Positions 39,940-55,980 of a DNA stretch of 64,000 bases are shown here, in pieces. Origin of the DNA: Alteromonadaceae bacterium XY-R5. GTDB lineage: Bacteria > Pseudomonadota > Gammaproteobacteria > Enterobacterales > Alteromonadaceae. Location of the stretch: the NCBI GenBank assembly GCA_001660395.1, contig LXWE01000012.1, positions 28,777 to 92,776 of the forward strand, read 5' to 3'. Each line of letters opens with the position of its first letter. Positions within the stretch are counted from its first letter, which is position 1. The position numbers and the translations under genes were made by a program. Below the pieces are notes generated by a model. That model saw nothing but the letters and a program-made list of their open reading frames with translations. It made no database searches and had not been told where the DNA came from.

Positions 39940-40944
39940 TTACTTAAACTCGGGGATAATCTCCTTGCCATAACGGGCGATGATGTTTTCTTCATCGCCG
40001 TTATCCAGATAGATGTTGAACTGGGTGGTGCCCGCTTCTTTGAGCTGCTGGATTTTGGCAATGTGGTCACTGGCTTCACCCAGTACGCAGAAACTCTTCA
40101 CTATGTCTTCGGTAATAAAGTCCAGGTAAGGGTTGTCGCTTTGACCGTGTTTGGAATAGTCGTAACCGCGGCGTTGTTCGATATAGTCCGTCAGGCTTTT
40201 CGGCACTAAACCGGATTCTGTGCCGTACTGTTCGACGATATCTGCCACATGGTTGCCAACCATGGCCGGGAACCATTTCGTTTTTTCGATACAGGTGGCC
40301 ATATCACCAAAATAGGCAGGCGCAGCCGCCTGTACCTTAAATCCAGACATATCTTTGCCTGCTTTTGCGCCAGCATCTTTACACTGCTGCTGGAACCACT
40401 GGACTAAGCTGGGTTCGGCAATTTGCAATACTACGCCATCGCCATATTCACCCGCAGTCGCCAGCGCTTTAGGGCCATAGGCAGCAATCCACACCGGCAA
40501 GTCGTAACCGACGGCCCAGGGAAATTTTACCGGCACTTCACATTCGCCATAGGTGACTTCGTCACCACGCACCATGGCTTTTACCTTTTGGGTAAATTCC
40601 GCCAAACGCGCTAGATTCGCAGGCTTCTTGCCCATCACGCGCATGGATGAATCGCCACGGCCAAGGCCAATGTCGAAACGGCCCTTGCTCTGGAGCGCCA
40701 GACTGGCGTACAGGCTGGCCGCTAACGACCAGTCACGAATATTAGGGTTGGTCACACAGGGACCAAAACGCATTTTCTCAGTGTGTTCCATACACATGGC
40801 CATGGCGACAAAAGATTCGCGCCACAGAATATGTGAATCGTAAAACCAGCAGTAATCAAAGCCTGCAGCTTCAGCCTGTTTTACCAGGCTTCTGGCGCGG
40901 TCCGGGCTCACAAAGCCTTTAAAGGTTATGCCGAATTCCATCAT
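39940..40944 (-). CDS. Luciferase-like F420-dependent oxidoreductase (candidate pyrimidine reductase)
   Basis: A 334-residue member of the luciferase-like TIM-barrel fold. It begins MEFGITFKGFVSPDRARSLV and has GFDYCWFYDSH, FGPCVTNPNIRDWSLAASLY, SKGRFDIGLGRGDSSMRVMG and WIAAYGPKALATAGEYGDGV, all at the usual F420-binding positions for the family. From memory it resembles the group named after CPS_4043 of Colwellia psychrerythraea, though I could not search. It is the last gene of the F420 operon, 15 bases after npdG. Because the nearby pyrimidine genes lack a classical dihydropyrimidine dehydrogenase, I infer it may reduce uracil or thymine with F420H2. It does not look like the FMN monooxygenase RutA. 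Confidence 0.87.
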   Translation of the reverse strand: MMEFGITFKGFVSPDRARSLVKQAEAAGFDYCWFYDSHILWRESFVAMAMCMEHTEKMRFGPCVTNPNIRDWSLAASLYASLALQSKGRFDIGLGRGDSSMRVMGKKPANLARLAEFTQKVKAMVRGDEVTYGECEVPVKFPWAVGYDLPVWIAAYGPKALATAGEYGDGVVLQIAEPSLVQWFQQQCKDAGAKAGKDMSGFKVQAAAPAYFGDMATCIEKTKWFPAMVGNHVADIVEQYGTESGLVPKSLTDYIEQRRGYDYSKHGQSDNPYLDFITEDIVKSFCVLGEASDHIAKIQQLKEAGTTQFNIYLDNGDEENIIARYGKEIIPEFK

Positions 40945-40959
40945 CTTTTCCTTGTCGAT

Positions 40960-41628
40960 TTAGTGTTGAGGTGCCCATATCCGAATGCCGGCATGACTAA
41001 ACGGAACCGCTTTGGACATATTGATACGAATCAGTATTGGGGTAATCGCCTCAATGCAGCGGGCGCTTTCTGCCAGACCCGCGTTGTAGGCTTCAACCCC
41101 TATCTGTTTAATCAGTGCGATCACTTTTTCCTTGGCGTCGAGCTGATTACCGCACACCAGCACATCACAGTTAATCGCTTGCTCGACCTTATTAAGAGTG
41201 ACGGCGGACACATTGTGTAAGGCGCCAACCACAGCGATTTCATCGCCTAGCAGCGCCTGCGCGGCTTCGGTGGCAGATCCTTCTGGTGGCATGGCTACGG
41301 CTTTTGGATTGCCTTCTGCCAGCGGCACGACGATATCGATGAGAATTTTGTCGCTGAGCAGCGTTTTGAGCTGTTCCAGGGTGGAATTGTGAGCCGCCCA
41401 GGGCACCGACAAAATCACAAACTCGCTGGCTGCAGCCACCGCCGATGCTGTGTCAGCCCCTGAAATGCTGCCGCTATTGGCAGGCAAGGCAGCGTTAAGC
41501 TCACTGGCTAATTCTGCGGCTTTGGCACCATCGCGAGAACCAAGTACGACGTCTACTCCGGCTGCAGCAAAACGCTTCGCCAGTCCTTTTCCCTGTGGGC
41601 CTGTGCCGCCTAAAATGGCAATCGTCAT
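40960..41628 (-). CDS. npdG: F420:NADPH oxidoreductase
   Basis: A 222-residue enzyme that exchanges hydride between NADPH and coenzyme F420. The N-terminal Rossmann motif is MTIAILGGTGPQGKGLAKRF, followed by GVDVVLGSRDGAKAAELASE and ILIDIVVPLAEGN. The start at 41628 overlaps the cofE stop as ATGA; a longer upstream frame would run into cofE. In this operon it would supply F420H2 to the oxidoreductase that follows. Confidence 0.9.
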   Translation of the reverse strand: MTIAILGGTGPQGKGLAKRFAAAGVDVVLGSRDGAKAAELASELNAALPANSGSISGADTASAVAAASEFVILSVPWAAHNSTLEQLKTLLSDKILIDIVVPLAEGNPKAVAMPPEGSATEAAQALLGDEIAVVGALHNVSAVTLNKVEQAINCDVLVCGNQLDAKEKVIALIKQIGVEAYNAGLAESARCIEAITPILIRINMSKAVPFSHAGIRIWAPQH

Positions 41629-54508: not shown

Positions 54509-54540
54509 CCTAGACAGTATCTGAAAAAGGAGTAAATCGT

Positions 54541-55980
54541 ATGTCGTTACTGCTCAAAGGCGGAACCGTAGTTACCCATGAGATGACCTTTCAGGCCGAT
54601 GTATTGTGTGACAATGGCAAAATCGTTGCGATTGGTCAGAGCCTGAATGCGCCAGACGGCGCTGAAATTCGTGATGTAGCAGGCAAACTTATTATGCCCG
54701 GCGGCATTGACCCTCATACCCATATGCAGCTGCCCTTTATGGGCACAGTTGCGGCTGACGACTTTGCCTCCGGTACCGCAGCAGCCCTGGCTGGTGGCAC
54801 CACCAGCATTATTGATTTTGTTATTCCGAATCCCGGTCAGCCGTTAATGGAGGCTTACCATCAGTGGCGAGACTGGTCGGCCAAAGCGATGGCTAATTAC
54901 AGCTTTCATGTGGCCATTACCTGGTGGGATGAATCCGTACATGCAGATATGCAAACTCTGGTAGAAGAATACGGAGTAAACAGCTTTAAACATTTTATGG
55001 CCTATAAAAATGCCATTATGGCCACGGACGATATTCTGGTGGCGAGCTTTAGCCGCTGTCTTGAACTGGGGGCGATCCCCACAGTGCACGCCGAAAACGG
55101 TGAGCTGGTGTATCACCTGCAACGGCAGATGCTGTCTCAGGGCATGACGGGCCCGGAAGCGCATCCATTATCACGTCCGCCTGAAGTGGAAGGTGAAGCT
55201 GCGCATCGTGCCATTAGCATTGCTGCCACGTTGGGGGCGCCTATTTATCTAGTGCATTGCTCGGTAGAGGAATCCGTTGATGCTATTCGCTATGCGCAGA
55301 ACAAAGGTCAGCATGTTTACGGTGAATGTCTGGCCGGGCATCTGGTGGTGGATGATAGCGTCTATCAGGATCCTGACTGGGATAAAGCCGCAGCCCACGT
55401 GATGAGCCCGCCGTTCCGTCCGAAAAAACATCAGGATGCATTATGGCAAGGCTTACAGGCCGGTACCTTGCAAACCACTGCAACGGATCATTGCGCGTTT
55501 TGTACAGCGCAAAAAGCCATGGGTGAAGACGATTTCACCCGAATTCCAAACGGCACCGCGGGCGTGGAAGAGCGCATGGCGGTGCTATGGGAAAAAGGCG
55601 TGAACAGCGGCAAGCTGACACCGAATGAGTTTGTGGCGGTCACCTCAACCAATGCCGCGCGCATCTTCAATATCTATCCTGCCAAAGGCTCGGTGACGGT
55701 AGGTGCAGACGCAGATTTGGTGGTGTGGGATCCCGATGCCAGCAAAACCATCAGTGCGGCCACACAAATGTCGAACATTGAACACAATATCTTCGAAGGT
55801 ATGCAGGTCACCGGTTTGCCAGTGCTGACCATTTGTAACGGCAACATTGCCTGGGATAATGGCACCCTGCTGGCCAAAGCGGGTGACGGAAAGTATATCG
55901 ACCGCCCTGCCTATGCGCCTTACTATCATGCGCTGCAAAAGCGCAGACAGTTAGCCACCCCAGTCCCTGTTGTTCGTTAA
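54541..55980 (+). CDS. Dihydropyrimidinase (hydantoinase family)
   Basis: A 479-residue amidohydrolase. The metal motif HTH is at residues 59-61 in GGIDPHTHMQLPFMG. SFKHFMAYKN (148-157) carries the bridging carboxylated lysine, and VHAENGELV and YLVHCSVEESVDAIR carry further histidines. TATDHCAFCTAQKAMGEDDF holds the conserved aspartate. It should open dihydrouracil or dihydrothymine to N-carbamoyl-beta-alanine derivatives, the second reductive step. It is last in the operon with the amidohydrolase and NCS1 transporter. The reductive step before it has no classical gene here. Confidence 0.93.
   Translation: MSLLLKGGTVVTHEMTFQADVLCDNGKIVAIGQSLNAPDGAEIRDVAGKLIMPGGIDPHTHMQLPFMGTVAADDFASGTAAALAGGTTSIIDFVIPNPGQPLMEAYHQWRDWSAKAMANYSFHVAITWWDESVHADMQTLVEEYGVNSFKHFMAYKNAIMATDDILVASFSRCLELGAIPTVHAENGELVYHLQRQMLSQGMTGPEAHPLSRPPEVEGEAAHRAISIAATLGAPIYLVHCSVEESVDAIRYAQNKGQHVYGECLAGHLVVDDSVYQDPDWDKAAAHVMSPPFRPKKHQDALWQGLQAGTLQTTATDHCAFCTAQKAMGEDDFTRIPNGTAGVEERMAVLWEKGVNSGKLTPNEFVAVTSTNAARIFNIYPAKGSVTVGADADLVVWDPDASKTISAATQMSNIEHNIFEGMQVTGLPVLTICNGNIAWDNGTLLAKAGDGKYIDRPAYAPYYHALQKRRQLATPVPVVR

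What the first reader, a model, noticed from the sequence alone, without database searches (positions are those of the whole stretch)
39940..55980. Candidate F420-dependent reductive pyrimidine catabolism system
Seen: a complete F420 operon (cofG, cofH, cofD, cofC, cofE, npdG) ends in a luciferase-like F420-type oxidoreductase. A RutR-like regulator and a set for reductive uracil or thymine breakdown (dihydropyrimidinase, ureidopropionase-type amidohydrolase, NCS1 transporter, beta-alanine aminotransferase, MmsA) lie beside it. Known: the reductive route begins with an NAD(P)H-dependent dihydropyrimidine dehydrogenase (PreAT/PydA type); none is in the window. Inference: the oxidoreductase reduces the C5=C6 bond using F420H2, which NpdG regenerates from NADPH. 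That would be an alternative first step to both PreAT and the oxidative RutA route. By eye the cof genes also look GC-richer than the replication genes, which could mean transfer; a window GC and codon-use calculation would test this.
Basis: partly seen in the sequence, partly recalled or inferred. Interest (0 to 1): 0.93.

Follow-up and report, generated by a model that had tools for sequence, protein, structure and literature searches.

The report
F420-dependent uracil breakdown gene cluster
A bacterium carries genes for the rare cofactor F420 and an F420-type enzyme right beside its genes for breaking down uracil, while no gene for the usual first enzyme of that pathway is found in its genome, so the F420-type enzyme likely does that first step; this would give F420 a purpose in bacteria where its role has been unknown.

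Summary
In detail: a cofGHDCE-npdG-oxidoreductase operon lies beside a RutR-like regulator and reductive pyrimidine genes. The own genome (rated 100% complete) shows no PreA (best 47.7 bits, cut-off 335) and no RutA. New evidence: (1) in the 80 nearest related loci none holds PreT, PreA or RutA, and 75 hold at least one pyrimidine-pathway gene; (2) in 215 genomes of one order, 22 have dihydropyrimidinase: 9 with this oxidoreductase (TIGR03842), 9 with PreA, 0 with both, 4 with neither; (3) PreA is in 4 of 66 genomes with the oxidoreductase; (4) a RutR-type palindrome lies upstream of the cof and the pyd operon, and upstream of cofG in 61 of 71 loci; the regulator keeps the five uracil contacts of E. 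coli RutR; (5) a Streptomyces plasmid pairs dihydropyrimidinase and oxidoreductase; (6) the model is closest to the F420-dependent reductase Mer. Most likely it is an F420H2-dependent dihydropyrimidine dehydrogenase, a new first step of the Pyd pathway. No activity was tested. Against: in three Limimaricola genomes the pyd genes seen sit with PreTA, not with the oxidoreductase, and some oxidoreductase loci lack pyd genes. Seven searches of an open-licence library showed no report of it.

The parts
39890..39917 (-). terminator-like hairpin (11 pairs, then TTTTTT) just after the oxidoreductase gene
   Evidence: terminator-like sites as a class are not above chance there (18 found, 18.3 expected)
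39940..40944 (-). luciferase-like oxidoreductase (TIGR03842), likely F420H2-dependent uracil/thymine reductase; last gene of the cof operon
40960..41628 (-). npdG, NADPH:F420 reductase; likely supplies F420H2
   Evidence: 191.5 bits, cut-off 149.8; start set by the profile
41625..42398 (-). cofE, F420-0:glutamate ligase
42405..43013 (-). cofC, guanylyltransferase of F420 synthesis
43010..43957 (-). cofD, transferase of F420 synthesis
43954..45225 (-). cofH, FO synthase subunit
45194..46324 (-). cofG, FO synthase subunit; first gene of the operon
46390..46405 (.). RutR-type palindrome TTTACCAAATGGTAAA upstream of cofG
   Evidence: site present upstream of cofG in 61 of 71 loci
46642..47277 (-). 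RutR-like TetR regulator, keeps all five uracil contacts of E. coli RutR
47354..48280 (-). LysR-family regulator
48388..49719 (+). omega-aminotransferase AptA, likely beta-alanine aminotransferase
49735..51234 (+). MmsA, (methyl)malonate-semialdehyde dehydrogenase, CoA-acylating
51605..51620 (.). RutR-type palindrome TTTACCTTTTGGTAAA (one mismatch) upstream of pydC
51722..52975 (+). pydC-like M20 amidohydrolase, likely beta-ureidopropionase
53018..54508 (+). NCS1-type nucleobase transporter
54541..55980 (+). pydB, dihydropyrimidinase

Best explanation
[quoted passage not shown] Proposed working: a RutR-like repressor would sit on palindromes upstream of cofG and of pydC (palindromes shown; binding inferred). 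Uracil would release it (its five uracil contacts are kept; release inferred), so that F420 synthesis, the oxidoreductase, the transporter and the hydrolases would rise together. NpdG would reduce F420 with NADPH. The oxidoreductase would pass a hydride to C6 of uracil or thymine, giving the dihydropyrimidine. PydB would open the ring, PydC release beta-alanine (or beta-aminoisobutyrate), ammonia and CO2, AptA make the semialdehyde, and MmsA turn it into acetyl-CoA (or propionyl-CoA). Shown here: the genes, their families, their conserved neighbourhood, the missing PreA and RutA matches, the palindromes, the predicted fold. Inferred: every catalytic step of the oxidoreductase and the regulation.
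Against: No activity data; the substrate and the cofactor are inferred. Four of 49 oxidoreductase genomes also have PreA: three Limimaricola and one Colwellia MAG. In the two Limimaricola genomes whose PreA region was fetched at length, pydC and pydB sit with PreT-PreA, while the oxidoreductase loci of Limimaricola (L077, L080, L081, L082) show no pydC or pydB, so there the oxidoreductase may do something else. Paracoccus alcaliphilus has cof and oxidoreductase genes with no pyd gene within 12 kb; L156, L158, L159-L163 and L165 show no pydB or pydC near, some of them being short pieces. One of ten oxidoreductase genomes in the survey lacks PydB over cut-off (G142), and in two of ten it is not near the oxidoreductase (G029 99 kb away, G166 on another contig). 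Four PydB genomes have neither first enzyme (G091, G152, G163, G253). The M20 protein also passes a model named allantoate amidohydrolase. Ten of 71 cofG promoters and 5 of 28 pydC promoters lack the operator, and genome-wide the pattern with one mismatch is no commoner than its reversed control (14 against 15). In the mureidomycin paper the in vitro assay of the oxidoreductase failed, and whether that protein is of this family was not checked. The 80 loci are not independent: 19 are Marinomonas.
Confidence: 0.84

Rival explanations
1. The oxidoreductase uses F420 at another step of the same pathway, for example reducing malonate semialdehyde or another carbonyl product, and uracil is reduced by an enzyme not recognised here.
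For: Its nearest solved relatives reduce methylene-H4MPT or oxidise alcohols and sugar phosphates; the neighbourhood alone does not say which step it does.
Against: MmsA in the window would already dispose of the semialdehyde. The exclusion with PreA among PydB genomes points to the first step. The own genome's weak PreA matches are explained by other enzymes.
Confidence: 0.07
2. The cluster takes up dihydropyrimidines, hydantoins or allantoin ready-made, no uracil is reduced, and the oxidoreductase serves something else under the same regulator.
For: P. aeruginosa PA0443, one of its putative NCS1/NCS2 transporters, was linked to dihydrouracil as well as uracil and thymine (PMC11633122, passages). 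The M20 protein also passes a model named allantoate amidohydrolase, and allantoin permease models match the transporter below their cut-offs.
Against: The ring-opening enzyme passes the dihydropyrimidinase model (582.7, cut-off 393.25) and not the allantoinase one (216.6, cut-off 357.85). The regulator keeps the uracil contacts of RutR, so uracil is the likely signal. In 9 of the 9 survey genomes with both PreA and PydB the two lie within about 5 kb of each other by the coordinates printed, the place the oxidoreductase takes here.
Confidence: 0.05
3. It is an FMN-dependent, oxygen-using enzyme in the manner of RutA that opens or oxidises uracil.
Against: Sequence similarity to E. coli RutA is marginal (22% over 148 residues, E 0.008 for the pair); the six best structural matches are Mer entries; the gene is the last of an F420 operon; PydB and PydC follow instead of Rut genes; cofG accompanies it in 57 of 58 genomes.
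Confidence: 0.02
4. An ordinary PreAT exists but sits in an assembly gap, or is too divergent to see, and the F420 operon is a mere neighbour.
For: The own assembly is in 415 contigs with 3.2% contamination.
Against: It is rated 100% complete; 62 of 66 oxidoreductase genomes lack PreA over cut-off, too many for gaps; the association of genes is kept across many genera.
Confidence: 0.02

Closest known systems
Reductive pyrimidine (Pyd) pathway with NAD(P)H-dependent PydA / PreT-PreA
   Same: PydB, PydC-like hydrolase, aminotransferase, semialdehyde dehydrogenase and nucleobase transporter
   Different: no PreA found; a single-domain luciferase-fold protein (one Pfam domain) stands where PreAT would be, together with F420 synthesis genes
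Ferredoxin-dependent PydAc of Clostridium chromiireducens (PMC7332683; part 1 of 4 of the text seen)
   Same: a change of electron donor at the same step
   Different: PydAc is a PydA homologue lacking the FAD part; the protein here is of an unrelated family
Methylene-H4MPT reductase Mer
   Different: 118.7 bits against a Mer cut-off of 348.7; Mer's Glu6, the residue changed in entry 8qq8 (E6Q), aligns with Thr7 here
Putative F420 luciferase-family yanthine reductase of Chloroflexota (PMC12507026; passages seen)
   Same: an F420 luciferase-family protein proposed in place of the usual ring-reducing protein in nucleobase breakdown
   Different: purine (urate) pathway, other phylum; described there as putative
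SSGG-03002 / NpsU of mureidomycin and napsamycin synthesis (PMC10714638; passages seen)
   Same: a putative F420/FMN oxidoreductase genetically shown to be needed for reduction of the uracil C5=C6 bond
   Different: antibiotic synthesis on a bound uridine; family relation to TIGR03842 not checked here
Rut pathway (RutA-G, RutR)
   Same: RutR-like regulator with kept uracil contacts; RutA shares the fold
   Different: no RutA match in the own genome; hydrolases of the reductive route instead

Membership tests
TIGR03842 (LLM class F420-dependent oxidoreductase, CPS_4043 family) | score over the curated cut-off | tested here: met
   515.6 bits, cut-off 295.45
F420-dependent luciferase-like hydride transferases | fold closer to F420 enzymes than to FMN monooxygenases | tested here: met
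F420-dependent luciferase-like hydride transferases | binds and uses F420 | not testable with these tools
   needs protein; cofG accompanies it in 57 of 58 genomes
Methylene-H4MPT reductase (Mer) | score over the Mer cut-off | tested here: not met
   118.7 against 348.7 bits (TIGR03555)
Methylene-H4MPT reductase (Mer) | Glu6 of Mer (mutated in 8qq8) | tested here: not met
   aligned residue is Thr7
PreT-PreA / PydA dihydropyrimidine dehydrogenase | PreA subunit in the genome | tested here: not met
   best 47.7 bits, cut-off 335; weak matches explained
PreT-PreA / PydA dihydropyrimidine dehydrogenase | PreT subunit in the genome | not tested
   not searched genome-wide; absent from the 80 loci
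Rut pathway | RutA in the genome | tested here: not met
   0 matches at E 0.001
Reductive pyrimidine (Pyd) pathway | dihydropyrimidinase | tested here: met
   582.7 bits, cut-off 393.25; 748 bits to solved D-hydantoinase/dihydropyrimidinase entries
Reductive pyrimidine (Pyd) pathway | beta-ureidopropionase | tested here: inconclusive
   right superfamily (428.3 bits, cut-off 204) but also passes a model named allantoate amidohydrolase (598.4, cut-off 452); an N-carbamoyl-beta-alanine amidohydrolase (8c46, 422.9 bits) scores well above allantoate amidohydrolase (1z2l, 165.2) among solved chains
Reductive pyrimidine (Pyd) pathway | enzyme that reduces uracil to dihydrouracil | not testable with these tools
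   needs an assay; assigned to the oxidoreductase by inference
RutR | score over the RutR cut-off | tested here: not met
   199.8 against 368 bits (TIGR03613); filed as RutR-like only
RutR | uracil contacts W77, Y97, W167, Q171, Q179 | tested here: met
   all five kept in the window protein and in 81 of 83 rows
F420 biosynthesis (CofG, CofH, CofD, CofC, CofE) | all five genes over their cut-offs | tested here: met

The most novel reading that the evidence does not exclude
The whole TIGR03842 family, in proteobacteria and actinomycetes alike, is the F420H2-dependent dihydropyrimidine dehydrogenase: a single-domain, iron-sulphur-free answer to PreAT. Many proteobacteria make F420 chiefly for this one step, and they switch F420 synthesis itself on and off with uracil through a RutR-like repressor, so that a cofactor known from methanogens is here an inducible part of a nitrogen-scavenging pathway.
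Probability: 0.65. Interest if true: 0.92.

Novelty: new variant of a known kind. Interest (0 to 1): 0.87.

Why it matters
A 2021 review lists why Proteobacteria make F420 among the unanswered questions (PMC8498797, passage). This cluster gives a directly testable answer: to break down pyrimidines. It would be a third kind of electron donor for uracil reduction, after NAD(P)H and ferredoxin, on an unrelated protein fold, and it would give a function to a family that NCBIfam lists only as a hypothetical equivalog. It also predicts that F420 synthesis is uracil-regulated. A small single-domain uracil reductase without iron-sulphur clusters, if confirmed, could be a handy tool for studying dihydropyrimidine chemistry.

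Tried and rejected
RutA-like action: rejected on sequence, fold ranking and absence of a RutA match. Mer function: rejected on score and on Glu6. Genome-wide enrichment of the operator as proof: not there (14 places against 15 for the reversed pattern); the argument rests on conservation between loci. There two of the 200 permuted half-sites also score high (60 of 71 and 21 of 28) because they differ from the motif by one exchange next to an ambiguous letter; the next highest are 7 and 1. The E. coli rutA-rutR gap gave only a three-mismatch match, so that the motif is RutR's own consensus is recalled, not shown; two papers that might give it are not held, and a text search listing did not show it. 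Own-order survey: the oxidoreductase is too rare there (2 of 217) for a useful table, so PreA and PydB were not run there. preT was not searched as a family genome-wide. In the surveys at most seven first-look candidates per genome were scored. Wider actinomycete sampling was out of reach: one Streptomyces plasmid only. In print: seven searches of the open-licence library showed no report of F420-dependent uracil or thymine breakdown. Of the larger answers only the listed top 20 were seen; (F420 with dihydrouracil) listed all 3 papers it found, two of which I opened for passages. Subscription journals and preprints are not covered. Passages of PMC6279831 were seen and not used. NCBI's note on TIGR03842 was recalled and is not used as evidence.
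Full report
What is there. On the minus strand, 46324 down to 39940, seven genes run head to tail, overlapping or within 15 bases of each other: cofG, cofH, cofD, cofC, cofE, npdG and a luciferase-like oxidoreductase. All pass their curated cut-offs. 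A terminator-like hairpin follows the oxidoreductase at 39917-39890. On the plus strand, 48388-55980, lie an omega-aminotransferase, a methylmalonate-semialdehyde dehydrogenase, an M20 amidohydrolase, an NCS1 transporter and a dihydropyrimidinase. Between them are a RutR-like TetR regulator and a LysR regulator. The dihydropyrimidinase scores 748 bits against solved D-hydantoinase/dihydropyrimidinase entries. The amidohydrolase scores best against hydantoinase/carbamoylase entries; N-carbamoyl-beta-alanine amidohydrolase (8c46, 422.9 bits) is well above allantoate amidohydrolase (1z2l, 165.2), though an NCBIfam subfamily model it passes is named allantoate amidohydrolase. So the window most likely encodes the reductive pyrimidine route from the second step on.

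The missing first step. The genome holding the window (5.1 Mb, 415 contigs, rated 100% complete, 3.2% contamination) has no RutA match at E 0.001 and no PreA over cut-off (best 47.7 bits against 335). The five weak matches are RsxB, DusB, quinone-dependent PyrD, DusC and DusA. preT was not searched separately.

Neighbourhood. A scan of named species genomes confirmed 286 relatives of the oxidoreductase; the best 80 were kept, so they lean to close relatives, and 19 are Marinomonas. tblastn with the window's proteins and E. coli PreT, PreA, RutA and RutG (tallied): cofG 71, cofH 73, cofD 73, cofC 74, cofE 74, npdG 74, RutR-like 68, pydC-like 63, NCS1 46, pydB 36, AptA 18, MmsA 19, PreT 0, PreA 0, RutA 0, all of 80. 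pydB is likely undercounted: in the survey genomes it lies 10.5-11.4 kb from the oxidoreductase in 7 of 9 and flanks stop at 10 kb. In 30 of 80 loci the oxidoreductase is followed on the same strand by pydC. Six of 80 show no cof or npdG gene; four of these (L053, L065, L067, L075) begin within 300 bases of the oxidoreductase, so its upstream side is not seen, while L046 and L078 have 10 kb upstream and still show pyd genes but no cof genes. The genomes of L046, L065, L075 and L078 do carry cofG, in a long frame of 840-864 residues (G018, G033, G040, G043). Five of 80 show none of PydC, PydB, NCS1, AptA or MmsA: L018 and L067 are cut short; L077, L080 and L081 are Limimaricola. L065 counts among the other 75 only by a weak (30%) MmsA match.

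Co-occurrence. In 215 genomes drawn from the order of Marinobacterium jannaschii the oxidoreductase is in 10, PreA in 15, dihydropyrimidinase in 22. Nine of the 10 oxidoreductase genomes have dihydropyrimidinase against 13 of the other 205 (Fisher p 2e-9). Of the 22 dihydropyrimidinase genomes, 9 have the oxidoreductase, 9 PreA, none both, 4 neither; the chance of no overlap is 0.0014 if the two were independent (relatedness is not corrected for). Six PreA genomes have no dihydropyrimidinase over cut-off. Over the genomes with the oxidoreductase that were tested, PreA is over cut-off in 4 of 66: 4 of 49 (50 of the 80 loci were given, one not held), 0 of 8 further ones, 0 of 7 alphaproteobacterial ones and 0 in G465, 0 in the own genome. 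The four are three Limimaricola species and one Colwellia MAG. Regions fetched from three of the four (L170-L172) show PreT-PreA with PydC and PydB of its own. In the Colwellia MAG the oxidoreductase locus has a second PydB, PydC and NCS1 (L069); in Limimaricola the oxidoreductase loci show no pydC or pydB, so there its role may differ. RutA is over cut-off in 0 of 59 (two sub-threshold matches near 265 bits). cofG is in 57 of 58; the one miss, G008, is the genome of L018, whose locus itself shows cofG, which I cannot explain.

Wider relatives. In Alphaproteobacteria 8 of 387 sampled genomes have the oxidoreductase. Of the regions fetched for seven of them, two show a plain oxidoreductase-pydC-pydB operon (L155, L157); the others (L156, L158, L159-L163, some short) show no pydB or pydC, and L159 has three tandem copies. 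A Leisingera aquaemixtae plasmid has dihydropyrimidinase, Zn hydrolase, aminotransferase and both transhydrogenase subunits divergent from cofGHDCE-npdG-oxidoreductase, then a TetR regulator (37% to the window's); transhydrogenase would feed NADPH to NpdG (inference). A Paracoccus alcaliphilus plasmid has the cof-oxidoreductase operon with no pyd gene within 12 kb. A Streptomyces plasmid, at 43% identity and 588.5 bits to TIGR03842, has a dihydropyrimidinase match ending 14 bases before the oxidoreductase match, with a class III aminotransferase and a carbon-nitrogen hydrolase of the nitrilase superfamily upstream. There the ureidopropionase would be of another family, yet the pair dihydropyrimidinase plus oxidoreductase is kept.

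Regulation. The palindrome TTTACCAAATGGTAAA lies at 46390, between cofG and the regulator gene, and TTTACCTTTTGGTAAA at 51605, upstream of pydC; the window has four matches with up to two mismatches against 0.26 expected. Over the 80 loci, 134 sites with at most one mismatch were found in 1.5 Mb: 126 within 700 bases upstream of a queried gene (88 of them cofG, 24 pydC), one inside a RutR-like gene, 7 elsewhere. Within 300 bases upstream of cofG a site is present in 61 of 71 loci, and upstream of divergent pydC in 23 of 28; permuted half-sites give means of 0.7 and 0.2. Successive sites upstream of cofG are mostly 32-34 bases apart (24 of 27 spacings). In the own genome the one-mismatch pattern is not commoner than its reversed control (14 and 15 places), but the only exact copy is the one upstream of cofG. 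E. coli RutR contacts uracil through W77, Y97, W167, Q171 and Q179 (PMC10891134, passages); all five are kept in the window protein and in 81 of 83 rows (some rows repeat the same gene), while only 38 of 212 RutR positions are kept in 90% or more of the rows. The regulator is below the RutR cut-off (199.8 against 368), so it is RutR-like.

History. The cof-oxidoreductase operon is 52.8% GC, above all of 100 overlapping windows from 400 kb of the own genome; the pyd genes at 50.7% are less unusual. The oxidoreductase is in 2 of 217 genomes of the own order and in 2 of the 17 listed genomes of the own family, and plasmids carry it elsewhere. This fits gain by transfer, but no tree and no codon-use test was made.

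Known and new. The Pyd pathway, its NAD(P)H and ferredoxin first enzymes (PMC7332683) and the F420 reductase fold are known. An F420 luciferase-family protein has been proposed for yanthine reduction in Chloroflexota (PMC12507026), and a putative F420/FMN oxidoreductase is genetically needed for reduction of the uracil ring in mureidomycin (PMC10714638), though its in vitro assay failed. F420-dependent breakdown of free pyrimidines was not seen in the listings of seven searches. I file it as a new variant of a known kind.

Noticed in passing
L096 / L165 (G142): A 42%-identical oxidoreductase in a genome of the surveyed order stands directly before MmsA, with no dihydropyrimidinase over cut-off in that genome.
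   Followed up: partly
L159, L151 (G850); also G642 and G722: Two or more copies of the oxidoreductase (about 50-56% identity), in G850 three in tandem, mostly near cof or npdG genes in Alphaproteobacteria without pydB or pydC in the fetched pieces; possible divergence of substrate.
   Followed up: no
L077, L080, L081, L082: In Limimaricola the cof-oxidoreductase operon is followed by a RutR-like gene (39%) but no pydC or pydB, while PreT-PreA sits with pyd genes elsewhere in the genome.
   Followed up: partly
L106 13196-15794: In Paracoccus alcaliphilus the cof-oxidoreductase operon is followed by an ABC transporter (substrate-binding protein, ATPase, permease) instead of pyd genes.
   Followed up: no
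L105 3254-6271: Both subunits of NAD(P)+ transhydrogenase lie between the pyd genes and the F420 operon in Leisingera; they could feed NADPH to NpdG.
   Followed up: no
G018, G033, G040, G043: cofG lies in frames of 840-864 residues, as in a fused CofGH.
   Followed up: no
G091, G152, G163, G253: Dihydropyrimidinase over cut-off but neither PreA nor the oxidoreductase; perhaps hydantoinases, or another first step.
   Followed up: partly
G055, G124, G184, G194, G214, G234: PreA over cut-off without a dihydropyrimidinase over cut-off.
   Followed up: no
own genome, loci L108, L109, L111-L120: Twelve further one-mismatch copies of the operator pattern elsewhere in the genome; as a set not above the reversed control.
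   Followed up: no
window 2578-23596: dnaN, dnaA, mnmE and ATP synthase atpA/atpD, the usual setting of a replication origin; an AsdA antisense RNA match (RF02674) lies within the dnaA span, on the opposite strand, at 4514-4594.
   Followed up: partly
G465 and G024: RutA-like proteins at about 265 bits, below the RutA cut-off of 498.3.
   Followed up: no
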